Part shown: piece after piece, positions 1-30,848 of the stretch | Layout of the letters: each line of letters begins with the position of its first letter | Numbering within the stretch: the first letter of the stretch is position 1 | Origin: Halobacteriales archaeon YIM A00013 | GTDB taxonomy: Archaea > Halobacteriota > Halobacteria > Halobacteriales > Haloarculaceae | NCBI GenBank assembly: GCA_025041195.1 | Contig: JAKCFM010000002.1 | Location: forward strand, 310,001-374,000 | Length of the DNA stretch: 64,000 nt | Direction: 5' to 3' | Translations under genes and position numbers: made by a program | Notes under the pieces: model-generated | What the model was told of the DNA's origin: nothing | The model's database searches: none | The model's input: only the letters and a program-made list of their open reading frames with translations

Positions 1-322
1 CCACGGGATGGAGGCGTTTTTCGAGCACGTGGAGACGCAACTTCAGCGCAATCATGACCGGTTCATGCCTGCGGGTGATCCGGGGCCGACGGAGGTTACC
101 GAACCGCTGTTCGAGGAGTTCGAGTTGATCAAGACGTACTGGCTCGATGTGCAACTCTCCAGCGGAACGGAGTGGAAAGTCCTCGTCTCGAAGTGGCGCT
201 TTCCCTATCGCGTGCGCGACGATCACCATCGCCGGCACCTCAACCTCGCACTAGACGTCGGCATTGGCCGCCGGACGCCGCTCGGCTTCGGCTTTCTCAA
301 CAAACAACTCGACGAAGAATGA
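1..322 (+). CDS. cas6: Cas6 crRNA endoribonuclease, C-terminal part (cut by window start)
   Basis: Cas6 cuts the CRISPR precursor RNA within each repeat to give crRNAs. The reading frame is open from base 2, so only about the last 107 residues are present. They match the C-terminal half of the complete Cas6 of the second locus. Shared features are SKWRF-YRVR, HHRRHLNLAL and the glycine-rich loop GIGRRTPLGFGFL typical of the RAMP fold. The stop codon overlaps the cas8b start in an ATGA junction, so this is the first gene of the locus 1 effector operon. The N-terminal half lies outside the window, so its integrity cannot be judged. Confidence 0.9.
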   Translation, partial: HGMEAFFEHVETQLQRNHDRFMPAGDPGPTEVTEPLFEEFELIKTYWLDVQLSSGTEWKVLVSKWRFPYRVRDDHHRRHLNLALDVGIGRRTPLGFGFLNKQLDEE

Positions 323-2433
323 GTGAAGAACTTCCCGATGACGACGCCCTGATCGAGCAACGGTTGCTCGACAGGCCGGTGACGTCTCTGCGGGACATCC
401 AGTACACGTACGGTGTGCTGGGCGATCTGGCAGCACCTGTCGATCACGAGTACGCCACGTTCCTCACTCCGGCACAGTTCGAGGGGACGCTCGACGTGGA
501 CGACGAAGAGGCCAAGCAGGGCCGCGTCATCGTCGCATACGTCGATCTGTCAAATCCTGACGACCCGTCCGTAGACCGTGTGGAGCCGGTCAAGTATCGC
601 CAGTCGCTTCGGCCGAAGCTCGCCCACGCACGGAAGAGTTCGTACTGGAAGCGCGATTTCAGCATTACCTTCCAGACTGGAGATGGGGCGGAACCCGACC
701 GGTTGGCAGACTACATGGAGTATCGGTTTACCGAATGGCCGGTACAGGTGGAGCCTAAGATTGTAGAGGCGTTGACGGACGAGAGCGGACAAACAATCGT
801 TGAGGCTCTCGAAAAACTCGGCGAAGATGCCGATGCGATGAAAGCTCTCCGAGAGAGGGTTTTTGAAATCGACCCAGACCCTGCGGTTCTGATGACCGTC
901 CGCGCGCGCGTTGACGAGAACGGAGGCTATCTCTGGCCGGGAGAAATCGACGTGTTCAACGACCTCCTCAAGCATCGAAAGACCGCGGACTACCGTGAGT
1001 CGAAACAGCACAAGGGAATGAGTGCTGGAAGCGGCTCCGCCACGGCGAGCGGCTCCGGCATCGACATGGTCACCGGCGAGGATAGCGAGTTGGTCGGTAT
1101 GGCGGAGGATCCGCTCAACTACTACCGGGTCAAGCAGGTCGAATGCTTCCCGGGAATGCACATCGAAAATTCATGGCTCTCGCATCCCGTGTCGGCAGAG
1201 ACCGCCCTCCTGATCGAGAACTCTGAGGATCTCGTCGACGCCTGTGGCTCGTCGAGTGGCCGATTCACGGTCTTTCATCTCCCGTACCTCACCGACAAGA
1301 TGACCGCGGACGACGCCCGGCTCCTGAACGCTATCCTGACTGACATCGGGAACGGCGTCACCGACGGAAGCGTCCTCCGCCACTTCTACGGCAAGACTCT
1401 CAAAGAGGACGGTGGCGAAGGGTACCGGCGGAGGCTCCGATTCCACACGATCGTTCTCGACCAGTACCAGAACAAGCGGTACCGCGTGTACGCCGAAGAG
1501 CCGGCTGCGATGGCACAACCTCTGTTCGATCTCGCCGAGGCACACAACGCCGAACTCCGACATGGCGTCTTCGGCGGGGCTGGACTGCCGACGACAGAGT
1601 CGACTGACTCCACGTCGGACGAGGACAACGCTGCGTTCCGGCTGATCAATACGGGAATGTCGGAACCGGATCGCGTCGACGGCATCGCGACGGGACAGTA
1701 CCTCGCGGAAACCCTCCCCCCCTTCGAGGACGCGAGCAGCCGCGACCCGTTGCCGGCCCTGATGACGTCGATCCACTCCGACGAGCAACTTTCGGAAGAA
1801 GAGGTGTTGCAGCTGTACGCCAAGCGGTTGGCAGCGGAAGAGCTCGACGGCGAACGCGAGGCGTACTTCGAGGAGGTCGCCGCAGAACAGTACGCACAGC
1901 TCCGCGCCCTCTCACGAGCCGAACTCCTCAACGGAACGACTTACCACAACACCATGACAGAAGACACGACAGACACATCACGGACGATACTGGCAGACGT
2001 GGACAGAGACGAAATCAGTCGTGTGGAGAAGCTTGACGCCTTCATCGAAGCGTCACCACATCTCGACGGATCGGACGACCGCCGCGCGGCGTTTCTGCTC
2101 GGTGCCCTGATCGGCCGACTCAGTCGGTATCAGTCGAACAGCCGCGGCGTCTCCCACACCATCCGCCAGAAGTACCCGGTCTCCCGAATCACCGTTGACC
2201 GTGCACGAGAGGCGTTCACCGAGGTCATCGACCTCAACAATACCTACTCGGACGCAGAAGACATTGGCGGCCTCATGTTCGAGGCGTACGTCACGCGCCT
2301 GACGGACGCACTCGGCCGGCAGAGCATCGATGAGTGGTCGATGGAGGAGGCGACGCTCAAGGTTGACTACGGCCACGGACTCGCGTACGGAGTGACAGAC
2401 AACACGAAGAAGAACCCCGAGAACGATGACTGA
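319..2433 (+). CDS. cas8b: Cas8b, type I-B Cascade large subunit
   Basis: This is a 704-residue haloarchaeal Cas8b, the large subunit that recognises the PAM and holds the Cascade complex on DNA. I assigned it by position between cas6 and cas7 and by similarity along its length to the locus 2 protein. Shared blocks include GIDMVTGE, VGMAEDPL, FHLPYLT/YQLPYFT, SRYQSN/SNYQGG and the C-terminal YGHGLAYG/QYASGLVFG. The start ATG at 319 overlaps the cas6 stop. A longer frame upstream merely overlaps cas6. The last ~160 residues form a region that could also be made separately as Cas11b from an internal ATG (see the entry at 1954). The gene ends in an 8-nt overlap with cas7. Confidence 0.9.
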   Translation: MSEELPDDDALIEQRLLDRPVTSLRDIQYTYGVLGDLAAPVDHEYATFLTPAQFEGTLDVDDEEAKQGRVIVAYVDLSNPDDPSVDRVEPVKYRQSLRPKLAHARKSSYWKRDFSITFQTGDGAEPDRLADYMEYRFTEWPVQVEPKIVEALTDESGQTIVEALEKLGEDADAMKALRERVFEIDPDPAVLMTVRARVDENGGYLWPGEIDVFNDLLKHRKTADYRESKQHKGMSAGSGSATASGSGIDMVTGEDSELVGMAEDPLNYYRVKQVECFPGMHIENSWLSHPVSAETALLIENSEDLVDACGSSSGRFTVFHLPYLTDKMTADDARLLNAILTDIGNGVTDGSVLRHFYGKTLKEDGGEGYRRRLRFHTIVLDQYQNKRYRVYAEEPAAMAQPLFDLAEAHNAELRHGVFGGAGLPTTESTDSTSDEDNAAFRLINTGMSEPDRVDGIATGQYLAETLPPFEDASSRDPLPALMTSIHSDEQLSEEEVLQLYAKRLAAEELDGEREAYFEEVAAEQYAQLRALSRAELLNGTTYHNTMTEDTTDTSRTILADVDRDEISRVEKLDAFIEASPHLDGSDDRRAAFLLGALIGRLSRYQSNSRGVSHTIRQKYPVSRITVDRAREAFTEVIDLNNTYSDAEDIGGLMFEAYVTRLTDALGRQSIDEWSMEEATLKVDYGHGLAYGVTDNTKKNPENDD
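1954..2433 (+). CDS. Predicted internally initiated Cas11b small subunit
   Basis: Within cas8b, codon 546 is an in-frame ATG (MTEDTTDTS) that would give a 159-residue protein covering the helical C-terminal part. In other type I-B, I-C and I-D systems the small subunit is translated from such an internal start. The locus 2 cas8b has an ATG at almost the same codon (549), also preceded by Asn-Thr/Thr-Asn and followed by Thr, although the surrounding sequence has diverged. I see no convincing Shine-Dalgarno sequence, which is not unusual in haloarchaea. This is inference from position and conservation. Confidence 0.5.
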   Translation: MTEDTTDTSRTILADVDRDEISRVEKLDAFIEASPHLDGSDDRRAAFLLGALIGRLSRYQSNSRGVSHTIRQKYPVSRITVDRAREAFTEVIDLNNTYSDAEDIGGLMFEAYVTRLTDALGRQSIDEWSMEEATLKVDYGHGLAYGVTDNTKKNPENDD

Positions 2434-3535
2434 CGACACACCCACATACGACCCGCTCGAGAATCGCAATGAAATCGTCCTGCTGTACGACGCCGTTAAC
2501 GCGAACTACAACGGCAATCCGCTGAGCCCTGCCAACAAACCCCGTGTCGACGAGTCGACCGGGGCCGGGGTGGTGACCGACGTCCGGTTCAAGCGGTACC
2601 TCCGCGACCAGCTCGAGGAGGACGGACATCCCGTCTACGTCCGCGCGGCCCAGACGGACGACGGGTACGTAAGCCGTCGCGTCGACTTGCTCGAAGACAG
2701 GCTGACCGACGACGTGCGGGAGCGGTTGGAAGAGTACGTCGGTGGCGAGGACGAGCCCAATGAGGACATCGGTGCGGACCTCCTCGATGAGGCGGTCGAC
2801 ATCCGGATGTTCGGCGCGACCCTGAGCATCGAAAGCAGCAATAGCGACGAGTACGAGCGCATCGGAGAAGTGGCGGGCGACGCCCTTCCGAATCACTACG
2901 AGGGGCCGATCCAGTTCTCGCCGGCGAAGTCGCTCAACCGCCCGGTGCAGCTCAACGACTCTTACAACAGCCTCACGTCAGTCATCGCCAGCAGTGAAGA
3001 GGCCGAGCAGGGCGGATTCAGCCTCGACGACCACCGCGCGAAGTACGCGCTGTTCCCCTTCTACGGCGTGGCAAACGAGAACGCGGCGACCGACACGCGC
3101 CTTCGGGCGGCGGACGTGGAGCGGCTCGACCAGTTGTGCTGGCGGGCGCTCAAGAACCAGACCATCACGCGCTCGAAGGTCGGACAGGAGCCGCGGCTCT
3201 ACCTCCGCGTCGAGTACGAGAAGGACTCGTACCACATCGGCGATCTCCACCACCTCATCCAGCTCAACGAGGACGAGTCCGCGTTGCCGGATCAGATGGA
3301 GAACATCACCAACGTCACCCTCGACATCGGGCCGCTGCTCGATGTCCTGAACAGCGAGAGCGACGTGATCGAGGCCGTTCACACGAACGTCGACCACCTG
3401 GTCACGTTCACCACGGGAGACGACACGGTGTACCGTAGCACAGAACTCTATGACCACCTCGAGGCCGCTGTCGGCGAAGAGTCCGTCGACGTGATCGACC
3501 CCCGTACCCTCATCGGACAGGACAGCACCGAGTGA
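2426..3535 (+). CDS. cas7: Cas7 (Csh2-type), Cascade backbone subunit
   Basis: This 369-residue protein is the repeated backbone subunit that coats the crRNA. The N-terminus NRNEIVLLYDA with NGNPLSP, the block VTDVRFKRYLRDQLE, the GPIQFSPAKS segment and the R-x-L-x-R-V-E-Y-E strand near residue 265 are typical of haloarchaeal Cas7. The same blocks recur in the locus 2 copy. The ATG lies inside the end of cas8b, giving an ATGACTGA overlap that suggests translational coupling. cas5 begins 4 nt after its stop. Confidence 0.92.
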   Translation: MTDDTPTYDPLENRNEIVLLYDAVNANYNGNPLSPANKPRVDESTGAGVVTDVRFKRYLRDQLEEDGHPVYVRAAQTDDGYVSRRVDLLEDRLTDDVRERLEEYVGGEDEPNEDIGADLLDEAVDIRMFGATLSIESSNSDEYERIGEVAGDALPNHYEGPIQFSPAKSLNRPVQLNDSYNSLTSVIASSEEAEQGGFSLDDHRAKYALFPFYGVANENAATDTRLRAADVERLDQLCWRALKNQTITRSKVGQEPRLYLRVEYEKDSYHIGDLHHLIQLNEDESALPDQMENITNVTLDIGPLLDVLNSESDVIEAVHTNVDHLVTFTTGDDTVYRSTELYDHLEAAVGEESVDVIDPRTLIGQDSTE

Positions 3536-3539
3536 TACG

Positions 3540-4337
3540 ATGGCCGGAAACGCAGACGGAACGTCGGTTCGCGTCCCACCGCGGTGCCTCTCGCTCCGTG
3601 TCAGCGGTGACTGGGCTCACTTCCGCCGCCCGGAGGGCAACGTCGTCAAGCGGACGTACCGGATCCCGCCTCGGACGACGGTCGCCGGTATGCTCGCGGC
3701 GATGGCCGGACTTCCCCGCGACAGTTACTACGGCCTGTTCGCCAAGGACAGTTCCGCTATCGCCATCCAGCCCCGGTTCGATCCCGTCAGTATGAACGTT
3801 CCAATGAACACACTGGACACGATGAACGATATGCGGAAGGCGGGAAGCGGTGACGCACCGACGGTCTACTATCCGGACACTAGCGGAGACCGGAAGCAAC
3901 ACAACTATGAGTATCTCGTCAATCCCGAGTACCGCATCGACGTGTGGGTTGACGACGACGAGACGTACGAGACACTGAAGAACCACCTTGAGGACGGGAC
4001 ATCCGTCTACACCCCGTCTCTCGGGCTCTCGGAACTGCTCGCCTCGGTTGAGTACTGTGGTGAATACCATCCTGAACCGGAGGAGACGAACGCATCGACG
4101 GCGGTCGATTCGGTCGTTTGGGGCGAGGGGAACGCCGTCCCGATGCCGGGCACCACGTGTAAGACGGAACGTTCGCAGTCGTTCATGGCTCGTACGGACG
4201 ACTCCGCGACGCTCGGCGGTGCCCGCACGGTCGAGGGGTACACGACGGTCGTCTATCCGGTCGACGAATCGACAATCGAGGCCACTCCCGACACCAGACT
4301 CGCGGAGTTCGACGGTAGAACCGTGATGTTCGGCTAA
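3540..4337 (+). CDS. cas5: Cas5 (Cas5b), Cascade subunit
   Basis: This 265-residue RAMP protein is expected to cap the 5' handle of the crRNA. The N-terminal block CLSLRVSGDWAHFRR is the Cas5 signature, followed by TYRIPPRTTVAGMLAAM. A second conserved block, YTPSLGLSELLA, lies near residue 160. The locus 2 homolog matches throughout. It lies between cas7 and cas3 with gaps of 4 and 9 nt, so it is part of one transcript. Confidence 0.9.
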   Translation: MAGNADGTSVRVPPRCLSLRVSGDWAHFRRPEGNVVKRTYRIPPRTTVAGMLAAMAGLPRDSYYGLFAKDSSAIAIQPRFDPVSMNVPMNTLDTMNDMRKAGSGDAPTVYYPDTSGDRKQHNYEYLVNPEYRIDVWVDDDETYETLKNHLEDGTSVYTPSLGLSELLASVEYCGEYHPEPEETNASTAVDSVVWGEGNAVPMPGTTCKTERSQSFMARTDDSATLGGARTVEGYTTVVYPVDESTIEATPDTRLAEFDGRTVMFG

Positions 4338-4346
4338 CACTCTTCT

Positions 4347-6953
4347 ATGCAATCTGTCTATGCTCACGACCCCGCAGACGGTGGTAATTTCCTCCTCGTT
4401 CACGGAGGTGCCGTCTCTCAGCGGGCGACGATATTCGCAGACGAAACCGGAGCCGAGACGCCAGATGGGACACCAATCAGTTGCATCACCGAGCCCGCCG
4501 GCCTCCTTCACGATATTGGAAAGGCGACCGACCCGTTCCAAGCGTATGTGACGGACGATGAAGACGCCGTGTCACCGCACGACCACTCACCAATCGGTGC
4601 TGTGGCGACGTTCGCGGCGTTGAGTACCCGGGGATCGTCCGAACGAGACGCGGTACTCGGCTTCCTCGCAGTCGCACTTCACCACAGCGACTTCCCGAAC
4701 CGAGAGTCACCACTACATTACATCGACAAGACCTACATCGAGAACGAGAACAAGCGAGAGTCGATCAGGAGCGTCGCCGAGAAGATGGACAAACACGACG
4801 AGACACGGCGAGTAGCGGATGAACTCTGCCGGCGAGCGAGCGATGGTGGACTCCGTTGGCAGCAACTCTCTTCCGAGATCCAGTCCGGAGAAGTCTTCGA
4901 CGACATCAAAGGGGCGATCAGAAAATCTCTCGTCCCCGGCGTGGAAGCTGGTATTGATGACGAACAACTGAGCGAAGATCACTACGCGGCGTTCCTGCAC
5001 GCGTGGACGTCGCTGGTCTTGGCAGACAAGACGGTGACGGCGACGCTCGACCGAGAGACGGTCACGACCGCCAGACGACTCCGCCGAAAGACGGTCAAAG
5101 AGACCATCGAAGATAAGGACGAGACGTCGTCGCTTGACGCCCGGCGGAACGAGGCTCACGAAACTGCGATTCCGAACGCAGAGCGGTTCGCCACCAACAA
5201 ATTGAGTTCGGTCGCCACACTGAGGCTTCCGACTGGACTGGGAAAGACTCTCACCGGACTGGACGCCGCGTTCGTCATCCGCGAGGAACGAGATACGACC
5301 GGGCCGGTCGTCTACGCGCTGCCGTACACTTCCATCGTCGAGCAGACCACCGACACGGTAGGCGACATCTTTACCGACCGCGATCCGACTGATCCGGCGT
5401 TCACCGTTCACCAGTATCTCTCCGAGACCATCACCGAACGGGAGAGCGACGCCATCACGGTCGAAGAGGCGAGTGCGGCGTCCCTCGCCGCCGAGACGTG
5501 GGGTGCGGACATCATCGTGACCACGTTCGTCCAACTGTTCGAGAGCCTCATCGGTCCGACCAACAGTCGCGGGCTGAAGCTGCCGAACCTGACGGGGGCG
5601 ACCGTCATCCTCGACGAACCACAGGCACTCCCCGAGACCGACTGGCCCCTCATCCAAGACGCCACAGCCCTCCTCATCGACGACTGGGACGCATCGGTCA
5701 TCTCGATGACGGCCACCCAACCCCAGCTCTTCGAGTCTGACGACCGGTTCAAGACGACGGCGCTCGTTCCGGACGCCGAGCGATACTTCAGCGCGCCCTC
5801 CGTCCAGCGGGTGCACTACATGTTCCACGAGTCGGTTCCCGAGTCCGGCAGTCGGAGCAAGACTCCCCTCTCGTACGAACGGGCGGCAACCACTCTCATC
5901 GAAGAGACGACGTCCAACCGGAGTGCGATGGCGATCTGCAACACGAAGGCGAGTTCTCGGCAGCTGATCGACTCGGTTCACGAGGAGGCAGAGGGTCGGA
6001 ACATCTCGTGTCGCTCCCTGAACGCATTGTACGACTGTCTCTCGGATGACGGGGAGGCAAATCCGACTCCCACCCAGCTGCTGACGTGGGTACAACAGAG
6101 CGATGTGGTGCAGGACGACGGCGGTCTCTTGACACTTCACCTGACATCTCGACACCGTCCCATCGACAGGCGGCGACTGCTCGAGGTCGTCGGATCGCTG
6201 GCAGACACCGGGCTTCGCGTGGTCTTCGTCGCGACACAGATCGTCGAGGCCGGCACGGACATCAGCTTCCAGCGCGTGTACCGTGATTACGCTCCCATAC
6301 CCAACATCGTTCAGGCCGCCGGTCGATGCAATCGTGAGTCGGAAGGTGTCCGAGGAACGGTGACTGTCTGGCAGCTTCGCACCGCCGCTGACCCGACAGA
6401 ACCCACCGAAGAAGACGACGATGGGGCCACCCTACTTCCAAGCGAGCAAGTCTATTCCGACCTTGACCAACTCGAAGCGACGACGAGGGCACTGACAGAA
6501 GCCGTTGACGCCGAATCGGTGGTCGGCCTCGGCAATGTTTCCTCAAACCACATCAATCTCGATGCAGTCGACGGGTACTACGACACACTCATCGACCGCG
6601 GCGTCGGTGAGTCCGATATGTCTCCGATTTCGGACTGTGACTTAGCCGAACTGAAAGAGTACTCGCTCATCGACGACGAGAGCGTCGACGTACTCGTCCT
6701 CAAGACCAAAAATGAGCGTGAAGCAGTCTCGGGGATCCGTCAGGATTTCGACGACGGGGAGTACGACGAAGCCCGCTCACGCCTGGGTAAACTAACCGAC
6801 CGACGGGTTTCGGTGCGGGTACAGCCAGATCAGGACGAGCATCCAATAGAAGCCTCTCTTGCCACTCTCGGCCCCACCCAAGTGTTCGTTCTGGATCTGT
6901 CCGACCCGGATGACGCCCGCTGGTATAGTGAGATTGCAAGCGTTATGGGGTGA
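4347..6953 (+). CDS. cas3: Cas3 helicase-nuclease
   Basis: This 868-residue effector nuclease is recruited by Cascade to unwind and degrade target DNA. The N-terminal HD nuclease domain shows H19, the H55-D56 pair in GLLHDIGKA, H78/H80 and H112-H113. The superfamily 2 helicase follows: Walker A PTGLGKT near residue 295, the DEAD-box equivalent DEPQ near 422, motif III MTAT near 454, and QAAGRCNR near 656. All catalytic motifs look intact. It is the last gene of the locus 1 operon and is followed by array A. It is about 200 residues shorter than the locus 2 Cas3, mainly because it lacks that protein's acidic insertion. Confidence 0.93.
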   Translation: MQSVYAHDPADGGNFLLVHGGAVSQRATIFADETGAETPDGTPISCITEPAGLLHDIGKATDPFQAYVTDDEDAVSPHDHSPIGAVATFAALSTRGSSERDAVLGFLAVALHHSDFPNRESPLHYIDKTYIENENKRESIRSVAEKMDKHDETRRVADELCRRASDGGLRWQQLSSEIQSGEVFDDIKGAIRKSLVPGVEAGIDDEQLSEDHYAAFLHAWTSLVLADKTVTATLDRETVTTARRLRRKTVKETIEDKDETSSLDARRNEAHETAIPNAERFATNKLSSVATLRLPTGLGKTLTGLDAAFVIREERDTTGPVVYALPYTSIVEQTTDTVGDIFTDRDPTDPAFTVHQYLSETITERESDAITVEEASAASLAAETWGADIIVTTFVQLFESLIGPTNSRGLKLPNLTGATVILDEPQALPETDWPLIQDATALLIDDWDASVISMTATQPQLFESDDRFKTTALVPDAERYFSAPSVQRVHYMFHESVPESGSRSKTPLSYERAATTLIEETTSNRSAMAICNTKASSRQLIDSVHEEAEGRNISCRSLNALYDCLSDDGEANPTPTQLLTWVQQSDVVQDDGGLLTLHLTSRHRPIDRRRLLEVVGSLADTGLRVVFVATQIVEAGTDISFQRVYRDYAPIPNIVQAAGRCNRESEGVRGTVTVWQLRTAADPTEPTEEDDDGATLLPSEQVYSDLDQLEATTRALTEAVDAESVVGLGNVSSNHINLDAVDGYYDTLIDRGVGESDMSPISDCDLAELKEYSLIDDESVDVLVLKTKNEREAVSGIRQDFDDGEYDEARSRLGKLTDRRVSVRVQPDQDEHPIEASLATLGPTQVFVLDLSDPDDARWYSEIASVMG

Positions 6954-6983: not shown

Positions 6984-7100
6984 ATCTGTTTCCACCAGTA
7001 GCGGCATATGATCGCTCGCATCAATCCAGTCGTCGTATCTGCCAACCGTGACCTCCGCTTCTGATTCAATCTGCCGTTTGGTACGGGGCTTTGCAGAGAG
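6984..7100 (-). pseudogene. C-terminal fragment resembling an endonuclease/exonuclease/phosphatase-family protein
   Basis: Between cas3 and the array A leader, the minus strand is open for ~39 codons. It reads ESEAEVTVGRYDDWIDASDHMPLLVE, interrupted upstream by a stop. The ASDHMPL motif is characteristic of the C-terminal end of the EEP metallo-hydrolase fold. No upstream part of such a gene is present, so this is a remnant if it is real. The identification rests on one motif. Confidence 0.33.
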
Positions 7101-7140
7101 TCAGGCCACCTACCCCTTCCGCGAGCATGGCCAGCCAGAT

Positions 7141-7237
7141 CCATCGACCCCCTGGGGTAATGAGACTACTGAGGGTCGATGGAAATCCTGATGTGAATTC
7201 GAATACATCGACCTCTATAGCCTACGAATCGGCTATG
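7141..7237 (+). promoter_or_regulatory. Leader of array A
   Basis: The leader contains a 10-bp perfect inverted repeat, CCATCGACCC (7141-7150) and GGGTCGATGG (7173-7182). The proximal arm ends 55 nt before the first repeat, and the leader finishes in CTATG directly before the repeat. The same layout is found before arrays B, C, D and E, which marks this as the leader and array A as transcribed on the plus strand. Confidence 0.75.
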
Positions 7238-7466
7238 GTTTCAGACGAACCCTTGTGGGGTTGAAGCGTAACCATATGTCCACTCGACGGTGATCGACTG
7301 TTGGTTTCAGACGAACCCTTGTGGGGTTGAAGCAACCTGGGGCACAAAGACGAGTTCCGGAGAGGGAACCGTTTCAGACGAACCCTTGTGGGGTTGAAGC
7401 TTGGTGAGTTTGGTGTTGCGACCCACTTCAATCCGCGTTTCAGACGAACCCTTGTAGGATTGAAGC
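7238..7466 (+). CRISPR. CRISPR array A, 4 repeats and 3 spacers
   Basis: There are four 30-nt repeats starting GTTTCAGACGAACCC and ending GGTTGAAGC, at 7238, 7304, 7371 and 7437. Spacers are 36, 37 and 36 nt. The last repeat has two changes (TAGGATT in place of TGGGGTT), as expected at the trailer end. It lies directly behind the locus 1 cas3 and is served by the 7141-7237 leader. The small number of spacers fits a locus that has lost its own adaptation genes. Confidence 0.95.
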
Positions 7467-7536
7467 ATCAGGTACTCGGCGCTGTCGAGCCGATTGGCTG
7501 AATGAGACGGAGGACAGAACAAACATCCCATCGCTA

Positions 7537-7995
7537 GTGATTCACGGTAGCGAAGGCGGAGATGCACTTCCCCTGCTACAGGAGACTGGCCGCGTACTGC
7601 GTCGCCACGCCAGGGATGACGGCAGCATTGATGAGTCGACAATGGTCTCGGACACCATTGCAGATTTCTACGACTCGCTGTTCAAGGGGCTGCTGGAACC
7701 CGGTGCTAGGCAACTCGCCACGGCTGTCAGATCGGCCTCAATGTCGGAGTTGAAGGGTGTACATATGATCGACGAGATTGAGTCCTACGAGGATGTGATC
7801 ACATGTCTCACCGACGAGGAACGGGACGAGCTACTCACTGATGAGCTGGGTGCCAACGACATATCACAGCATTCCGGAGCACAGGTCACCACCGACCCCG
7901 ACGCGTGGACAGACGAAGTCACAATCGGTAACTCGAGATATCTGCTATTGGACACCCGTAACGCCCCTTATCATCCAGTCTTCGGGGTCCAGTGA
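7537..7995 (+). CDS. Unrecognised ORF between two facing CRISPR arrays
   Basis: This 152-codon frame fills most of the 583-nt gap between arrays A and B. The upstream frame stays open into the last repeat of array A, so the start is uncertain: GTG at 7537, or ATG at 7642 (MVSDTIADFYDSLFKG). The product is acidic and mostly helical at first, then has a C-terminal stretch rich in beta-type residues. I recognise no domain. It may be a captured gene piece or the core of a former gene. Its acidic composition argues that it is, or was, coding. Confidence 0.4.
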   Translation: MIHGSEGGDALPLLQETGRVLRRHARDDGSIDESTMVSDTIADFYDSLFKGLLEPGARQLATAVRSASMSELKGVHMIDEIESYEDVITCLTDEERDELLTDELGANDISQHSGAQVTTDPDAWTDEVTIGNSRYLLLDTRNAPYHPVFGVQ

Positions 7996-8049
7996 GCGTC
8001 TATCGATACTGCGTCGCTCGGTAGTCCTGCTGGCAGTGACTTGGAGTCG

Positions 8050-8405
8050 GCTTTGACACTACTAGAGTTCGTCTGAAACAGTCGCCCAATTTGCCGATAG
8101 CGCGCTGCTAGGAATCGCTTCAGCCGAGGGTTCTACTGAAACAAGGGGCGCTCGAAACACCTACCTCACGATGATGGACCTTCGACCCGATGAGGGTTCG
8201 TCTGTAACATGGCCGTCCTCGAACGCTTCAGGGTCGAACGAGTGGCTTCAACCCCACAAGAGTTCGTCTGTAACTCGCTGTCTCCTTCGATATCGCCGTC
8301 TGGATCCCGGCTTCAACCCCACAAGGGTTCGTCTGTAACGTGCTTTCCGGTCGCCTTTCTCAGGTGTTTCCCGTCGCTTCAACCCCACAAGGGTTCGTCT
8401 GTAAC
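8050..8405 (-). CRISPR. CRISPR array B, 6 repeats and 5 spacers, facing array A
   Basis: On the minus strand, three clean 30-nt repeats (8376-8405, 8310-8339, 8245-8274) are followed by progressively degenerate ones at 8179-8208, 8117-8142 and 8050-8079. The repeat starts GTTACAGACGAACCC, differing from array A at position 4 (A for T). Spacers are 35-37 nt. Repeat decay increases away from the leader at 8406-8502, which fixes the orientation. The array is convergent with array A. Confidence 0.92.
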
Positions 8406-8502
8406 CATAGCCGATTCGCAGGCTATAGGGTTCTATGTATCCAAATCCACATCAGAATTTCCATCGACCCTCAGTAGCCTCCCTACCCAGGGGGGTCGAT
8501 GG
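8406..8502 (-). promoter_or_regulatory. Leader of array B
   Basis: This is the reverse complement of a leader closely similar to that of array A. The inverted repeat arms CCATCGACCC (8461-8470) and GGGTCGATGG (8493-8502) are 10 bp and perfect. The proximal arm lies 55 nt from the first repeat, and the ACTGAGGGTCGATGG and GAATCGGCTATG segments are shared with leader A. The distal edge abuts the remnant of cas2, so the ancestral order on the minus strand was cas1-cas2-leader-array. Confidence 0.75.
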
Positions 8503-8514
8503 ACCTGGCTCCAA

Positions 8515-8713
8515 GCCTGCTGATCGTCCATCAGATCCTCACCGAATACGAACTGACCAACGTACTTCTCCGAGGCCATTCGGTACACCATCACGGATTC
8601 GTCAGAGATGAGCATTGCTTCGAGTGTAGTCTTCACTCCTCAAGCATGCTTTCGGTTAGTTCCCCTACGAACACGGGTTTTGAACGTGAGCCGGATACCT
8701 GCGGAGATACTTG
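8515..8713 (-). pseudogene. cas2: Decayed cas2
   Basis: Reading the minus strand in three successive frames gives KYLRRYPAHVQN, then PVFVGELTESMLEE, then VKTTLEAMLISDES-VMVYRMASEKYVGQ followed by VFGEDLMDDQQ. This is the order of a haloarchaeal Cas2 (LRRYL-HVQ-SVF-GE, then E-S-V-Y-R, KYV, FGEDP-D-Q). Frameshifts occur near 8673-8681 and near 8633-8640. The N-terminal ~20 residues carrying the VVVYDV strand are missing. The C-terminus differs from the intact Cas2 at 23239, so this remnant belongs to a different lineage. The 3' end runs into leader B. Confidence 0.7.
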
Positions 8714-8830
8714 AGTTTGAACAAGTCTGCGATATCGAGTGCAAGCGAGTTTCGTCGCTCTCAGGGCTCGTGGAGGAAGCTCACACCCGGAGTAAGTCCG
8801 ATTGCACAAATCGCTGGAAAGTCTATAGCG
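8711..8830 (-). pseudogene. cas1: Decayed cas1 fragment fused to the cas2 remnant
   Basis: The minus strand reads AIGLTPGVSFLHEP, a TGA stop (8761-8763), then ERRNSLALDIADLFK. This matches the active-site region of Cas1. The intact locus 2 Cas1 has HPAVSYLHAPGNRR followed by TSLALDVADIFKP, which contain the metal-binding His and Asp. The frame passes straight into the Cas2-like KYLRRY segment, so a deletion removed the end of cas1 and the start of cas2. The rest of cas1 is absent. The adaptation module of locus 1 is therefore dead. Confidence 0.7.
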
Positions 8831-8922
8831 AGATGTGTACTGTGCTTCACTCTGCCCCCTACGACGACTTAGTATCGTCCAGGGTGAAACCGCGGCTGAG
8901 ATCTCCCATTCTTGCAGTTGTT

Positions 8923-9021
8923 CCATCAACCCCCCCGGGGGTTCGGGGAGATTGAGGGTCGATGGGAATCTTGATGCCGATACAGGTATATCACCCGTAT
9001 GAGGACGCCGATGCGCCAATG
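8923..9021 (+). promoter_or_regulatory. Leader of array C
   Basis: Arms CCATCAACCC (8923-8932) and GGGTCGATGG (8956-8965) form the same palindrome as leaders A and B with a single mismatch. The proximal arm is 56 nt from the first repeat. GAATCTTGATG after the arm matches AAATCCTGATG in leader A, and CAATG precedes the repeat. Confidence 0.7.
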
Positions 9022-9835
9022 GTTTCAGTTGAACCCTAGTCGGGTCGAAGCCTGAATCACTCGTTGTTCTCCGCGATTACGAAAGTTTCAGTTGAACCCT
9101 AGTCGGGTCGAAGCAACTGAGTCCGAGAGACGAACCCGTGCAGACGCCTCGTTTCAGTTGAACCCTAGTCGGGTCGAAGCGAGCATTGGAGCCGGACGAA
9201 CGCCTGCGAATGGAACGTTTCAGTTGAACCCTAGTCGGGTCGAAGCCAACCGCCATCCCGCTGCGACGTGTATCGACACGCGTTTCAGTTGAACCCTAGT
9301 CGGGTCGAAGCACATCGGACAGAGACCTCAAACGTTGTCTCATATCCGTTTCAGTTGAACCCTAGTCGGGTCGAAGCGAGGACTGTCGCCCCCTCAAAAT
9401 CACGACTTTCGCCTGTTTCAGTTGAACCCTAGTCGGGTCGAAGCAAGAACGAGCGTGGGGAATACCATGCCAGCGCTGGTTTCAGTTGAACCCTAGTCGG
9501 GTCGAAGCTGCTCAACTGAGTGTTGGGCGCGCTATCAGCGCGAGTTTCAGTTGAACCCTAGTCGGGTCGAAGCGATCCATTCCTCGCTGGAGATACTCTC
9601 CACGCGCACGGTTTCAGTTGAACCCTAGTCGGGTCGAAGCGTCGAGCGTAACGAGGACGCATTCGTCCAGGAGCTGGTTTCAGTTGAACCCTAGTCGGGT
9701 CGAAGCAAAGTTGTCGAAGAGCAGTGGCTCAACGGAGAACCGGGGTTCAGTAGAACCCTTTAGGGTTGAAGCGTTCCGATGCGAATCACCGCAAATCGAA
9801 CCGATGAGTTCAGACGAACCTTGTGGGATCGGAGC
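9022..9835 (+). CRISPR. CRISPR array C, 11 identical repeats plus 2 degenerate
   Basis: The 30-nt repeat starts GTTTCAGTTGAACCC and ends TAGTCGGGTCGAAGC. Copies lie at 9022, 9085, 9151, 9217, 9282, 9348, 9415, 9479, 9544, 9611 and 9677, with spacers of 33-37 nt. Two degenerate copies follow: 9744-9772 (AGTAGAACCCTTTAG type) and 9808-9835 (CAGACGAACCTTGTGGG). The last is closer to the array A/B repeat than to array C, so the tail derives from a different repeat family. No cas gene with this exact repeat adjoins it. Short ORFs reading through the array are artefacts of its periodicity. Confidence 0.95.
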
Positions 9836-9920
9836 CTCTACGAACAGGTCCAGGAAGCCGCCACGGTGCCGTTCAATGAGGACCTTCCTGGCGTAAGAAG
9901 ACGATATACCATATCTCGCT

Positions 9921-10049
9921 ATACTAATTCGATTGCTTGCCGCGATTTGTGGCGCCACATAGATTACTGACTAAATTGATCAAATAAGAACTAGAATAGC
10001 CCTGTCAGCAGGGAGATGACTGCTGACAGACTGTCAGTAACCACTGTTT
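9921..10049 (+). repeat. Direct repeat, copy 1, on the left of Cas locus 2
   Basis: Two conserved blocks recur at 25214-25340. Block 1 (9921-9956) matches 29 of 36 positions and includes CCGCGATTTGT. Block 2 (10002-10049) matches 41 of 48 positions. Block starts are 81 nt apart here and 79 nt apart in copy 2. Block 2 holds the perfect palindrome CTGACAG-A-CTGTCAG (10023-10037) and a further CTGTCAG at 10002-10008, which looks like an operator or recombinase site. Copy 1 sits just upstream of a serine recombinase fragment. Confidence 0.65.
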
Positions 10050-10099
10050 GTTATATAGTTCGTCCCCCGTCAGTAAGTCGTACTCAGGTAGCTCGCTGT

Positions 10100-10231
10100 G
10101 CTACCTACATTCGCGCCTCGACCGACACCCAAGAGACCACCCACCAACGCACCGCGATCGAGACTGGCTCGACTCCTCGACGAAACTGCACCGGAAGACA
10201 ACTAGCCAGAATGCTCCTGTCCAGCTGGTGA
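10100..10231 (+). pseudogene. Serine recombinase (resolvase) N-terminal fragment
   Basis: The frame reads ATYIRASTDTQETTHQRTAIE. This is the beginning of the resolvase catalytic domain, with the Y-x-R-x-S-T-x-x-Q motif carrying the nucleophilic Ser. After ~20 residues the sequence loses all similarity (TGSTPRRNCTGRQ) and stops at 10231. Only a broken 5' part remains. It directly follows the palindromic direct repeat, consistent with a relic of a mobile element. Confidence 0.5.
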
Positions 10232-10288
10232 GCACAGCCTCTCTCAGCCACAAGACTCATTCTGATCTGCGCCATCGTGCGGGATGAC

Positions 10289-10468
10289 ATGAAACGATGG
10301 GAGTACAAGATTGTCGATCTTTCCGGGGACGGACTGTTGAATACTCCGGGCTCACCAACAGAGAGCGATCTTAATGCCCTTGGAGAGCAAGACTGGGCGC
10401 TCGCGACAGCCGTGGCAGATAAAACACAGAAAACCGACGCCCTCGTGTTCAAGCGTCCGAAAGCATGA
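10289..10468 (+). CDS. Small DUF4177-like protein
   Basis: This 59-residue protein starts MKRWEYKIVDL and contains LNALGEQDWALATAVAD and ALVFKRP. That is the pattern of the DUF4177 family of small proteins of unknown function (WEYK, then L-N-x-x-G-x-x-G-W-E-L, then a final F-K-R strand). A GTG four codons upstream is an alternative start. It stands alone on the plus strand between the recombinase fragment and an orphan CRISPR repeat. Confidence 0.6.
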   Translation: MKRWEYKIVDLSGDGLLNTPGSPTESDLNALGEQDWALATAVADKTQKTDALVFKRPKA

Positions 10469-10534
10469 GCTACTCCAAGCGACGCTCTTGAAATCACTCA
10501 TACTCCATCTCATTCCTTGTCCGCTCAATGAATG

Positions 10535-10564
10535 GTTATAGACGGACCCTAGTGGAGTCGAAGC
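10535..10564 (+). repeat. Orphan degenerate CRISPR repeat
   Basis: A 30-nt sequence GTTATAGACGGACCC...GTGGAGTCGAAGC matches the array A and C repeats at about three quarters of positions. It is preceded by AATG, as the first repeats of true arrays are. About 35-45 nt downstream, GAATCCTAATGG may be a second, more decayed half repeat (around 10600-10625). No leader palindrome lies 55 nt upstream. Confidence 0.6.
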
Positions 10565-10649
10565 ACCAACTTCTCAGCGAGTCTGTTTCGGAGAAGACGC
10601 AGAGTGAATCCTAATGGACATCCGGGGATGACGGCGGTCGAGAGAGCCA

Positions 10650-11284
10650 TCACCAGAGCGCCGCAAGGAGGGCTGGAATCCACGTCGAGAGATAGAGTGT
10701 CGACTGATCCATACCATTAGCCGTATCCATCGAGATCTGAGTGACAAGCACCACACTCACCACTCCCATCGTCCCGTACAACACCGCGAACCCACGCGGA
10801 TCAAACAGAATACCAATCCCAAGAAGAACGAGATAGCCAGCACCACCGAACCAGTGCAGCGAGCCGACCGGCTCAGTGAGGAGAAATATGATCCCGATAA
10901 TGTGTATCAAAAAGAATAGGAGAGTGCCGACAACCAGGGGGATAATCCACGGCTCGCCACGACTCAAGCCGTGCTCATCTCGTCCGTCAGTGATGTCGTG
11001 GTCATGGCGGGCGTTGTGACAATCCACACAGAGCAGTTCGAGATTGCGTAGTCGATTCGAGCCCCCTCCGAGAGGGGCGTCGTGTGATGGACGTCCAGCA
11101 CCTTCCCCTCACCCGCTGCCACTCCACACTCCTGGCAGGTGTAGTGATCGCGCTGTTTGACAGCCTCTTTGCGGGCGTCCCAATCCGGCGGATAGCGACC
11201 GTCGTAGGTCCCCTGTTCGTTGTATCCGACGTGAATCCCGTCAGTATCGGCCGCTATCGACGTGACTGTATTACCTATTTCGTT
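10650..11284 (-). pseudogene. HNH endonuclease fused to membrane segments, frameshifted
   Basis: On the minus strand the upstream frame reads GYNEQGTYDGRYPPDWDARK, QRDHYTCQECG and VLDVHHTTPLSEG, an HNH nuclease with its first CxxC and the His-His motif. After a G-rich run (plus strand ~11061-11068) the frame shifts and continues GGSNRLRNLELLCVDCHNARHDHD, with the second CxxC, followed by three or four hydrophobic segments ending at 10650. The combination of HNH and transmembrane tail looks like one original gene. The upstream frame begins after a stop codon at 11285-11287 and has no clear start. It is probably inactive unless the frameshift is a sequencing error. Confidence 0.6.
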
Positions 11285-20794: not shown

Positions 20795-20818
20795 CTATAC
20801 AATTATGACTTCCTATTT

Positions 20819-20915
20819 CGTCGACCTCCTAGGGGTGTTTGCATGATTGGGGGTCGACGGAACAGCGAGCGAAAAATCACCAGCATTAAGCCCTATAGCG
20901 TACCATATGGCAATG
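20819..20915 (+). promoter_or_regulatory. Leader of array D
   Basis: The palindrome is CGTCGACC (20819-20826) with GGTCGACG (20852-20859). Compared with leaders A and B (CATCGACC/GGTCGATG) both arms have changed in step, so pairing is kept. The 10-nt proximal arm ends 55 nt before the first repeat, and CAATG precedes it. The middle (CCCTATAGCGTACC) recalls the CCTATAGCC of leaders A and B. Confidence 0.75.
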
Positions 20916-23238: not shown

Positions 23239-23499
23239 TTAGTGAAATCGCGAGCCGAAAGATGCAGTTCCGTATTCGTGTTGGGTGACGTGGGATCTAC
23301 TCTCAAATTCGAGAGCTAGTATATTGTCCATCGGCTCAAGTTCCCGCTCAATTGCAGCGAGAACATCCCTACATTGTGCCTCCGTAACGTCGCCAAAGAA
23401 TACAGACTGCTGGACATGTCGAAGATACCGACGAAGTAGCTTTCGGAATACGATTGTTCGATCGCTAGGAACATCGTACACAACAACTAAATAGGACAT
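23239..23499 (-). CDS. cas2: Cas2, CRISPR adaptation protein
   Basis: This 86-residue protein has the ferredoxin-like Cas2 fold: MSYLVVVYDVPSDR with the conserved Asp, RKLLRRYLRHVQQSVFFGDVT, and a final beta-strand region. It forms the Cas1-Cas2 integrase that inserts new spacers. It is the last gene of the cas4-cas1-cas2 operon, one base beyond the cas1 stop, and is convergent with array D. Its C-terminus (LALEFESRSHVTQHEYG) is unlike the decayed Cas2 at 8515, so the two loci had distinct adaptation modules. Confidence 0.93.
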   Translation of the reverse strand: MSYLVVVYDVPSDRTIVFRKLLRRYLRHVQQSVFFGDVTEAQCRDVLAAIERELEPMDNILALEFESRSHVTQHEYGTASFGSRFH

Positions 23500-23500
23500 C

Positions 23501-24502
23501 TCACCACCACCGTTCGGTTGGGTGGTATGTTTCTCCTGTCAAGATATGCTTCTTCAAACTATAGACATCTGTCTGAATTAATGTTTTATAACTCACCTTT
23601 CTCTTCAGCTGAGGATGATCAACAGTCCGATCAAGTGTCTGCTCATATTCCTCAAGAACTATTTTCCGTGCCTCATCTGTAAGTCGAGGCGTTGATGTTG
23701 CCCCGGTAAATGAATTCATGTTCAACTGATTCCGGTTGCAGATACGAAACAGGATGCGATCTGCTATCAAGGGCTTGAAAATATCTGCCACATCCAGTGC
23801 CAACGACGTACGACGATTCCCTGGAGCATGGAGATAACTAACCGCTGGATGGAGGGCCGTTGTATGGATCGCCGAGGTCGTCGCAGTATACACTAATGCA
23901 TTTAGATACGAGATTAACGCGTTCACCTCGTTTTTCGGTGGATTATAGCTCCGAACCTTGAACGTGAACGGCTCTGCGAGAATCTCGTCGAACGTTGCGT
24001 AGTAGCAGCGGCGTGCCGTCGCCTCGTGGCCCATGAGTGACTCTACATCATCGAACGACTGCTCATCCAATGTTTCCCGAAGCTCGGCCAGACGCTCACA
24101 GGAAGCAGAGAGATCGCCCCGCCGTCCATTGTAGTAGCGAACATTCGTTCGCATGTTGTGGATGCTCGCCCCCACAATCTTTCGAGCGATATCGAGTCTA
24201 TCCTCTGGATCAATGAATCGTTCAACTTGTGCAATGATGGTATTTCCGGACGTATGCCCACTGGTCGGACAGTACGAGCCAACATATGTGCCACTCCAAT
24301 CGAAGATGTGGAGTGCAATTCCGTGATCGTCTAACAGCGCCAAGCACGCCGTATTGAGGTCAATCTGTTCGTGTGCATAGAGCGTATCAACACGTTCAAT
24401 TGGGAGATATTCGTGATCGTCTCCCTCCCGTTCTATTCGAAGGGAATCTTCGTATCGACAGAGACGCCCAGTTGAGAGGATGTGATGATTCGGTTTCGTC
24501 AT
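23501..24502 (-). CDS. cas1: Cas1, CRISPR adaptation integrase
   Basis: This 333-residue Cas1 starts at MTKPNHHILSTGRLCR, where the ATG overlaps the cas4 stop in an ATGA junction. Two further ATG codons upstream lie inside cas4 and are not preferred. The metal-binding residues are the Glu of LMGHEATARR, the His of SYLHAPG and the Asp of LALDVADIFKP. Cas1 joins the prespacer to the leader-repeat junction. This is the only intact Cas1 in the window and may also serve arrays A-C if it tolerates their repeats. Confidence 0.95.
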   Translation of the reverse strand: MTKPNHHILSTGRLCRYEDSLRIEREGDDHEYLPIERVDTLYAHEQIDLNTACLALLDDHGIALHIFDWSGTYVGSYCPTSGHTSGNTIIAQVERFIDPEDRLDIARKIVGASIHNMRTNVRYYNGRRGDLSASCERLAELRETLDEQSFDDVESLMGHEATARRCYYATFDEILAEPFTFKVRSYNPPKNEVNALISYLNALVYTATTSAIHTTALHPAVSYLHAPGNRRTSLALDVADIFKPLIADRILFRICNRNQLNMNSFTGATSTPRLTDEARKIVLEEYEQTLDRTVDHPQLKRKVSYKTLIQTDVYSLKKHILTGETYHPTERWW

Positions 24503-25044
24503 GTCCAACAGAGCCCCCGGTAAGCACATGAATCGCAATACGGTTTCTCTTCTAATTTCGGTGGAGAGGATGTCTCCGCGATCTCGTGAATACCTACAAT
24601 CGCTTCCTCGACCTCGCGGCTGCGATCGTCAGTTAATAAGACGGTTTCACGGCGGCGTTCGGTAGGAAATGCAAGAACCCCTTCACGCTCATCATCAAGG
24701 ATGTTAGCAAAATACCAGAGGTAGTAGGACAGTTGCAACTCTGCCCCACGAGTGAGACGTGACGATGGTTTCACCTCAACAATACGACCATCATCAAGGA
24801 GATCGGGAGCAATCGATCCATTGATAACGCCTGTAGACTGCTTTCGAGGATAACTGTCTGTATCTACGCGGTCACCACGCCGAATTGATGCATTTTGCCG
24901 ATCAATCTCAATGCCTCGCAGATAAAACCACAGCTCTCGTTTACAAATCGCGTAATACTGCATGGCAATACCGGTAATCCGAATAGAGGGGGACTGGACT
25001 GTATCCCGCTCCGCTTCGAGAAATTCACGTGCCACTGAATCCAT
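24499..25044 (-). CDS. cas4: Cas4 exonuclease, prespacer processing
   Basis: This 181-residue RecB-like nuclease carries an iron-sulfur cluster. C34 (AICKRELWF) and C170, C173 and C179 (YCDSCAYRGLC) supply the cluster ligands. D81 (SIAPDLLDDG), E90 and K92 (VEVK) form the nuclease site. Cas4 trims prespacers and helps select the PAM and orientation. It is first in the cas4-cas1-cas2 operon, and the very AT-rich stretch at 25045-25160 probably holds its promoter. Confidence 0.93.
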   Translation of the reverse strand: MDSVAREFLEAERDTVQSPSIRITGIAMQYYAICKRELWFYLRGIEIDRQNASIRRGDRVDTDSYPRKQSTGVINGSIAPDLLDDGRIVEVKPSSRLTRGAELQLSYYLWYFANILDDEREGVLAFPTERRRETVLLTDDRSREVEEAIVGIHEIAETSSPPKLEEKPYCDSCAYRGLCWT

Positions 25045-30257: not shown

Positions 30258-30352
30258 GCTTCAACCTTACAAGAGTTCGTCTGAAACGCCGTCGCACAGT
30301 ACGGTCTTGAGGCGATCTATCCGCTTCAACCCTACAAGGGTTCTGCCGTAAC
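30258..30352 (-). CRISPR. Mini CRISPR array E, 2 repeats and 1 spacer
   Basis: On the minus strand two 30-nt repeats (30323-30352 and 30258-30287) enclose a 35-nt spacer. The leader-proximal repeat starts GTTACGGCAGAACCC, mixing features of array D (GTTACAGCAG) and arrays A/B (CCCTTGTAGGGTTGAAGC). The distal one is of the A/B type. A recognisable leader lies at 30353-30449. No cas gene lies within 5 kb. Confidence 0.75.
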
Positions 30353-30449
30353 CATGCCCAACTGGTGGAAGCTGGGCTTTGTGTATACTGATTTTGTCGC
30401 CCCCTCTCCATCGACCTTCAGTAGGGCAGTCTCCCCCCAGGGTTGAAGG
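30353..30449 (-). promoter_or_regulatory. Leader of mini-array E
   Basis: The proximal arm CCATCGACC (plus strand 30408-30416) and the distal arm GGTTGAAGG (30441-30449) form a weakened version of the leader palindrome. The proximal arm is 55 nt from the first repeat, the same distance as in the large arrays. CATG precedes the repeat. Confidence 0.65.
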
Positions 30450-30818
30450 ATAGGGCGACGAATATGGTGATCATACGGTAATACTTCTGGCATACTGGTT
30501 CTCTGGCATTAGAGGCTGAGGAGAGTAACTGTCCATCATCACGGGCGGTATACGGAGTGTAGCGTGCCTTACAGTGCGCGAGGAGAAAGCCCCTACAGGC
30601 AGTGTATCCATCCGGTGCTGTCCGAACATACGACGATTAGTCGCACTGTCATAGTGCTATTATGAGACTGTCCACGCTGAGGATCACTCTGGTGAAGGTG
30701 ATGACGAACTCGCATAGTCCATCGATCGGGCCTGTGGCGAGGAGCGACGGCAGTCACTCGTAGGAAAGATTATCCAGAGAAGCATCTACAACAGGAGAGC
30801 AACTGTGAGGGACGACGA
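30450..30818. other. No gene seen
   Basis: This stretch between the mini-array leader and the orphan repeat has stops in all frames at short intervals. I see no recognisable protein segment and no repeat. Confidence 0.4.
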
Positions 30819-30848
30819 GTTTCAGACGAACCCTTGTAGGGTTGAAGC
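30819..30848 (+). repeat. Orphan CRISPR repeat of the array A type
   Basis: This 30-nt sequence is identical to the array A repeat except for TAGGG in place of TGGGG. It has no second repeat and no leader. It directly abuts the truncated 5' end of the coding remnant at 30849, as if a recombination event joined them. Confidence 0.8.

What the first reader, a model, noticed from the sequence alone, without database searches (positions are those of the whole stretch)
8515..8830. Decayed cas1-cas2 shows that CRISPR locus 1 once had its own adaptation module in the same layout as locus 2
The minus strand between arrays B and C carries LALDIADLFK and VSFLHEP of Cas1 joined by deletion to the LRRY...HVQN, FVGELTE and KYVGQFVFGED parts of Cas2, with a nonsense codon and two frameshifts. 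Locus 1 thus reads effector operon > array A, then < array B < cas2 < cas1. Locus 2 reads effector operon > array D, then < cas2 < cas1 < cas4. The Cas2 C-termini differ, so two distinct adaptation modules existed and one died. Arrays A and B are short and degenerate, as expected.
Basis: partly seen in the sequence, partly recalled or inferred. Interest (0 to 1): 0.72.

Follow-up and report, generated by a model that had tools for sequence, protein, structure and literature searches.

The report
Dead CRISPR spacer-acquisition genes, cas1-cas2
Between two CRISPR arrays of a salt-loving archaeon lies the wreck of a cas1-cas2 gene pair, the genes that add new spacers; it probably served an earlier CRISPR operon whose interference genes were later replaced, and this genome has lost the same gene pair at three of its five type I-B CRISPR operons.

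Summary
Minus strand 8819-8517 holds 33-35 codons of Cas1 fused by a 330-bp in-frame deletion (at 8716/8715) to Cas2 codons 19-85. It has one TGA, two frameshifts, a third indel and a lost stop codon. A Halocatena salina plasmid carries the same cas1-cas2-leader-array stretch at 81-89% DNA identity; 1000 shuffles come nowhere near. The module is distinct from locus 2's. (1) The layout is not that of locus 2: the relic ran into the leader of array B, whereas locus 2's cas2 abuts the trailer end of array D. In all 22 loci checked with intact close relatives, cas1-cas2 is colinear with the effector operon. (2) 'Its own' is doubtful. Locus 1 is a mosaic: its Cas6 (83%) and an unreported Cas3 tail at 7498-7992 (71.5%) match Halobacterium GSL-19, but cas8b-7-5-3 between them do not (27-40%). 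The relic probably served the displaced operon. (3) It is one of several: this genome has five I-B effector operons, three with dead cas1; no other of 195 genomes sampled has more than two. Decay and module shuffling are known; the number in one genome and the visible effector swap are unusual.

The parts
8716..8819 (-). cas1 remnant: 33-35 codons around residues 206-240, TGA at 8763-8761
   Evidence: 79% aa identity to JP-L23 and H. salina Cas1; 89% DNA over 76 bp to H. salina; 80% DNA over 103 bp to G024
8715..8716 (-). deletion junction: 330 bp missing relative to H. salina (cas1 codon 241 to cas2 codon 18), frame-preserving
8517..8715 (-). cas2 remnant: codons 19-85 in three successive frames; third indel and lost stop at about 8522-8515
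8405..8513 (-). leader B, directly after the former cas2 end, 83% to the post-cas2 leader of H. salina, 87% to leader A
8050..8405 (-). array B: 3 good repeats at the leader end (GTTACAGACGAACCCTTGTGGGGTTGAAGC, one with a further substitution) + 2 decayed repeats
7498..7995 (+). C-terminal 165 codons of a foreign cas3 (ghost of the displaced operon), between arrays A and B
   Evidence: 71.5% aa to residues 699-862 of Halobacterium GSL-19 Cas3, 73% DNA over 475 bp; not from the locus 1 or locus 2 cas3
7238..7466 (+). array A: 4 repeats (GTTTCAGACGAACCCTTGTGGGGTTGAAGC)
7133..7237 (+). leader A, 87% to leader B (inverted)
6995..7055 (-). 61-bp remnant shared with the 3' flank of GSL-19 cas3 (80%); reads like the tail of an endonuclease/exonuclease/phosphatase-type protein (..DWIDASDHMP..), tentative
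316..6953 (+). current locus 1 effector block cas8b-cas7-cas5-cas3, 27-40% to the GSL-19 homologues
1..322 (+). 3' end of locus 1 cas6 (whole gene C2:309564-310322), 83% aa / 81% DNA to GSL-19 cas6, homology ending at the cas6 stop
8925..9706 (+). leader C and array C (11 identical repeats GTTTCAGTTGAACCCTAGTCGGGTCGAAGC); twin leader/array Z on the other side of the operon at C2:308512-309228
23239..25044 (-). intact cas2, cas1, cas4 of locus 2 (comparison), at the trailer end of array D

Best explanation
The stretch is a dead type I-B cas1-cas2 pair, formerly transcribed on the minus strand into leader B and array B. It lost its function through 5' truncation of cas1, a 330-bp in-frame deletion joining cas1 codon 240 to cas2 codon 19, one nonsense codon and three indels (shown). 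It most likely belonged to an earlier, GSL-19-like operon at this site, of which cas6, a cas3 tail and array B survive, and whose cas8b-7-5-3 were replaced by the present effector block (inferred). With no cis Cas1-Cas2, arrays A and B can still supply guides but can gain spacers only if Cas1-Cas2-Cas4 of locus 2 or of the chromosomal locus work in trans (inferred, untested).
For: Protein and DNA matches with the right order and frames, and a shuffle control. H. salina keeps the colinear cas1-cas2-leader-array with almost the same repeat. Mosaic structure: GSL-19 Cas6 83% and Cas3 tail 71.5%, against 27-40% for cas8b/7/5/3, with homology stopping at the cas6 stop codon. GSL-19 shows cas3 > < array < leader, matching cas3-tail > < array B < leader B. 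No closely related intact Cas1 is elsewhere in the genome.
Against: GSL-19 itself has no cas1-cas2 behind that leader, so the adaptation part of the ancestral GSL-19-type locus is inferred, not seen. All 22 intact loci of this Cas1 subfamily are colinear with their effectors. Relics of this array family are scattered in the genus, so the block could have arrived already dead.
Confidence: 0.6

Rival explanations
1. The relic came in as a ready-made or dying cassette with array B (and the A/B leader family) by recombination between plasmids, and never served any operon at locus 1.
For: Arrays with the same leaders and repeats plus fragments of cas3/cas1 occur at window 30.3-30.9 kb, C3:102 kb and in G001; array C beside it is bordered by an inverted 14-mer resembling a mobile-element end.
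Against: The GSL-19-type cas3 tail and cas6 lie on either side in the order expected of one former locus.
Confidence: 0.25
2. Locus 1's present effector block once had a standard colinear cas3-cas4-cas1-cas2-leader-array tail, and a later inversion turned cas1-cas2-leader B-array B round.
For: Every intact close relative of this Cas1 is colinear; arrays A and B with their leaders form an inverted pair that could mediate inversion.
Against: The present effectors have no close relative associated with this Cas1 (best Cas8b 36%); the foreign cas3 tail between A and B needs a further event.
Confidence: 0.1
3. One reading: locus 1 (present effectors) had its own convergent module laid out like locus 2's, which died.
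For: Position and relative direction.
Against: Leader and array orientation differ from locus 2; the effector block is a newcomer relative to cas6 and the cas3 tail.
Confidence: 0.04
4. Chance resemblance, or a coding sequence of another kind.
For: Plus-strand ORF 8608-8955 and minus-strand ORF 8633-9019 exist.
Against: Shuffle control and DNA-level orthology.
Confidence: 0.005

Closest known systems
Halocatena salina AD-1 plasmid NZ_CP096021 type I-B locus
   Same: cas1-cas2-leader-array in the same order, 81-89% DNA, near-identical repeat
   Different: cas2 reading frame is open (CTG start); cas1 lacks its first ~85 codons and cas4 is gone; colinear with cas3; effectors 25-42% to locus 1
Haloarcula sp. 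JP-L23 plasmid CP050018, Halarchaeum sp. CBA1220 NZ_CP054708 and ~20 other intact loci
   Same: JP-L23 Cas1 79% and Cas2 65% identical to the relic; leader starts just after cas2
   Different: Intact cas6-8b-7-5-3-4-1-2, all on one strand
Halobacterium sp. GSL-19 plasmid pGSL19_54.9 type I-B locus
   Same: cas6 and cas3 tail; cas3 > < array < leader
   Different: No cas1-cas2-cas4; own cas8-7-5
Provirus-encoded type I-B systems without cas1/2/4 in Haloferax lucentense (PMC12596717)
   Same: Haloarchaeal I-B effectors without a cis adaptation module beside a complete system in the same cell
   Different: Genes are absent there; here the wreck is still in place
CRISPR remnant of Haloquadratum walsbyi HBSQ001 (PMC3119063)
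   Same: Decay of a haloarchaeal CRISPR locus by deletion
   Different: All cas genes lost there

Membership tests
Type I-B Cas1 (TIGR03641) | Sequence match to the family | tested here: met
   Own-genome HMM search finds C2:318716-318811 at 6.2e-9, positions 203-234
Type I-B Cas1 (TIGR03641) | Full-length open frame scoring over the family cut-off | tested here: not met
   36.2 bits against a cut-off of 304.1; one TGA; about 10% of the protein left
Cas2 (TIGR01573) | Single open frame of ~87 aa | tested here: not met
   First 18 codons deleted, three frames, stop codon lost
cas1-cas2-leader-array module of the JP-L23 / H. salina type | Gene order cas1 > cas2 > leader > repeat with leader ~105 bp | tested here: met
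cas1-cas2-leader-array module of the JP-L23 / H. salina type | cas4 upstream of cas1 | tested here: not met
   No Cas4 match in 7000-10700; upstream of 8819 the sequence matches an unrelated G005 segment
Same layout as locus 2 | Adaptation operon at the trailer end of the array, pointing at it | tested here: not met
   Relic abuts leader B; in locus 2 the leader motif lies at about 20818-20915, on the cas3 side
Trans-adaptation ('adaptive outsourcing', PMC12596717) | Spacers acquired after loss of cis cas1-cas2 by another locus's proteins | not testable with these tools
   Suggestive only: arrays C, Z and C3:109/118 have uniform repeats and unshared spacers without a cis cas1

The most novel reading that the evidence does not exclude
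One haloarchaeon has collected five type I-B effector operons on three replicons, lost the adaptation genes of three of them in situ by independent lesions, and keeps their arrays fed in trans from the two remaining Cas1-Cas2-Cas4 sets; at locus 1 the effector genes were also exchanged between cas6 and the old cas3.
Probability: 0.3. Interest if true: 0.55.

Novelty: new member of a known kind. Interest (0 to 1): 0.36.

Why it matters
Relics in place show that I-B systems that look 'effector-only' can be former complete systems, and they record module swaps. Here the old cas6, cas3 tail, array and cas1-cas2 wreck still bracket the new effector block. The genome offers a natural test of whether one Cas1-Cas2 set can serve arrays with other leaders and repeats.

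Tried and rejected
Chance similarity was rejected by shuffles. Recent duplication of locus 2's module was rejected (54% / 39% identity; locus 2 Cas2 does not detect the relic). A shared spacer between the A/B/C/Z arrays and the related relic arrays would have shown copying; none was found. Spacers of arrays A, B and C gave no match in plasmids or phages. Close relatives of the locus 1 Cas8b were sought to test the layout; none was above 36%. GSL-19 was searched for cas1/cas2/cas4 remnants; none was found. The Cas3 tail has no Pfam match on its own; its identity rests on the GSL-19 alignment.

Full report
What is there. The window is C2:310001-374000 of a 3.73-Mb, three-contig haloarchaeal genome whose nearest relatives are Halocatena. 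Locus 1 is a type I-B operon: cas6 (mostly upstream of the window), cas8b, cas7, cas5, cas3. It is followed by leader A-array A (+), array B-leader B (-) and leader C-array C (+). A further array Z with the repeat and leader of C lies upstream of cas6. Between leader B and leader C, on the minus strand, lies the reported stretch.

Check of the observation. Intact Cas1 and Cas2 of Haloarcula JP-L23 and Halocatena salina align in the stated order: Cas1 208-240 at 8814-8716, then Cas2 19-31, 33-45 and 46-85 down to 8517, with one TGA and two frame changes. In 1000 dinucleotide shuffles the best scores were 26.2 (Cas1) and 21.9 bits (Cas2), against 49.3 and 64.3 in reality. DNA alignment to H. salina is colinear from cas1 through cas2, leader and first repeats, with a 330-bp gap exactly at 8716/8715. 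It also reveals a third 1-bp indel and a lost stop at the Cas2 end. 330 is a multiple of three and cas1 and cas2 share a frame in H. salina, so the deletion by itself made an in-frame fusion. The Cas1 end at about 8819 is a second breakpoint: 8814-8912 matches a segment in another Halocatena genome (G005) that lies beside an ORF which reads, by eye, as a tyrosine integrase.

Relation to locus 2. The intact relatives of the relic are 54% (Cas1) and 39% (Cas2) identical to locus 2's proteins, and locus 2's Cas2 does not recognise the relic above shuffles. Two modules therefore did exist. The layout is not the same: the relic abuts leader B with the usual spacing of about 105 bp, whereas locus 2's cas2 abuts the distal end of array D, whose leader motif lies beside cas3. 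In the 22 loci where an intact close Cas1 (at least 68%) lies on one contig with effector genes, cas3-cas4-cas1-cas2 run the same way, and in most an array follows about 105 bp after cas2. The convergent arrangement seen here is therefore derived, or belongs to another operon type.

Whose module was it? Between arrays A and B an open frame at 7498-7992 is the C-terminus of a Cas3, 71.5% identical to that of Halobacterium GSL-19. The GSL-19 Cas6 is 83% identical to locus 1's Cas6, with DNA homology ending at the cas6 stop codon. The genes between, cas8b-7-5-3, are only 27-40% identical to GSL-19's, no closer than to other I-B systems. A short homology (61 bp, 80%) to the GSL-19 cas3 3' flank follows the present cas3. 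The simplest reading is that a GSL-19-type operon had its effector genes replaced and left its cas3 tail behind. GSL-19 has cas3 > < array < leader, the order of cas3 tail > < array B < leader B here, so the dead cas1-cas2 would be the next piece of that older locus. This last step is inference, because GSL-19 has no cas1-cas2. The exact order of events, and how array A came to lie between the two cas3 ends, is unresolved.

Context in the genome. The genome has five Cas7/Csh2 genes over the family cut-off but only two full Cas1b genes; the other three operons carry Cas1 fragments. The lesions differ: locus 1 as above; C3:110 kb keeps Cas1 86-126 joined to the last codons before the leader; C3:18.8 kb keeps the Cas1 C-terminus and the Cas2 start, followed by what reads by eye as an IS200/605-type ORF. 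In 195 genomes of the order, 64 have this Cas7 over cut-off and none besides this one has more than two matches. Few other genomes show a short Cas1 fragment, G011 most clearly. The HMM search will miss very short remnants, so the fragment counts are lower bounds.

Function. The stretch cannot encode Cas1 or Cas2 (shown). Arrays A and B have 4 and 5 repeats, decayed distally; C and Z have 11 and 10 perfect repeats without a cis module. Whether any of them still gains spacers through locus 2 or the chromosomal set is open.

Known precedents. Haloarchaeal I-B systems without cas1/2/4 and the idea of outsourced adaptation are described (PMC12596717), as are module shuffling (PMC6452270; PMC12669027) and a decayed haloarchaeal CRISPR locus (PMC3119063). 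The finding is a new instance of known processes, in an unusually rich genome.

Noticed in passing
7498-7992 (+): Unreported tail of a foreign cas3 between arrays A and B, 71.5% identical to Halobacterium GSL-19 Cas3.
   Followed up: yes
G000 C1, C2, C3 (whole genome): Five type I-B effector operons in one genome, three with fragmentary cas1; no other of 195 sampled genomes of the order has more than two Cas7/Csh2 matches.
   Followed up: partly
30258-30848: Relic of another I-B locus: single repeats at 30287 and 30352 (-) and 30819 (+) around a fused cas3'-cas1' fragment; 97% identical over 2.8 kb to a Halocatena relative (G001) and similar to C3:102 kb.
   Followed up: partly
8824-8837 (+) and 9910-9923 (-): Inverted 14-mer (one mismatch) bracketing leader C and array C, resembling a repeated element end in the genus; array C may lie in or between mobile-element footprints.
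   Followed up: partly
L022:13611-14615 (Halocatena salina plasmid): The closest relative is decaying too: cas1 lacks its first ~85 codons, cas4 is gone, cas2 starts with CTG.
   Followed up: partly
L042:15478-15956 (G011): Another I-B locus with only the last 71 codons of cas1 before an apparently intact cas2, and no cas4 match.
   Followed up: no
10535-10564 (+): Single stray repeat-like sequence (6 mismatches to the A/B repeat) outside any array.
   Followed up: no
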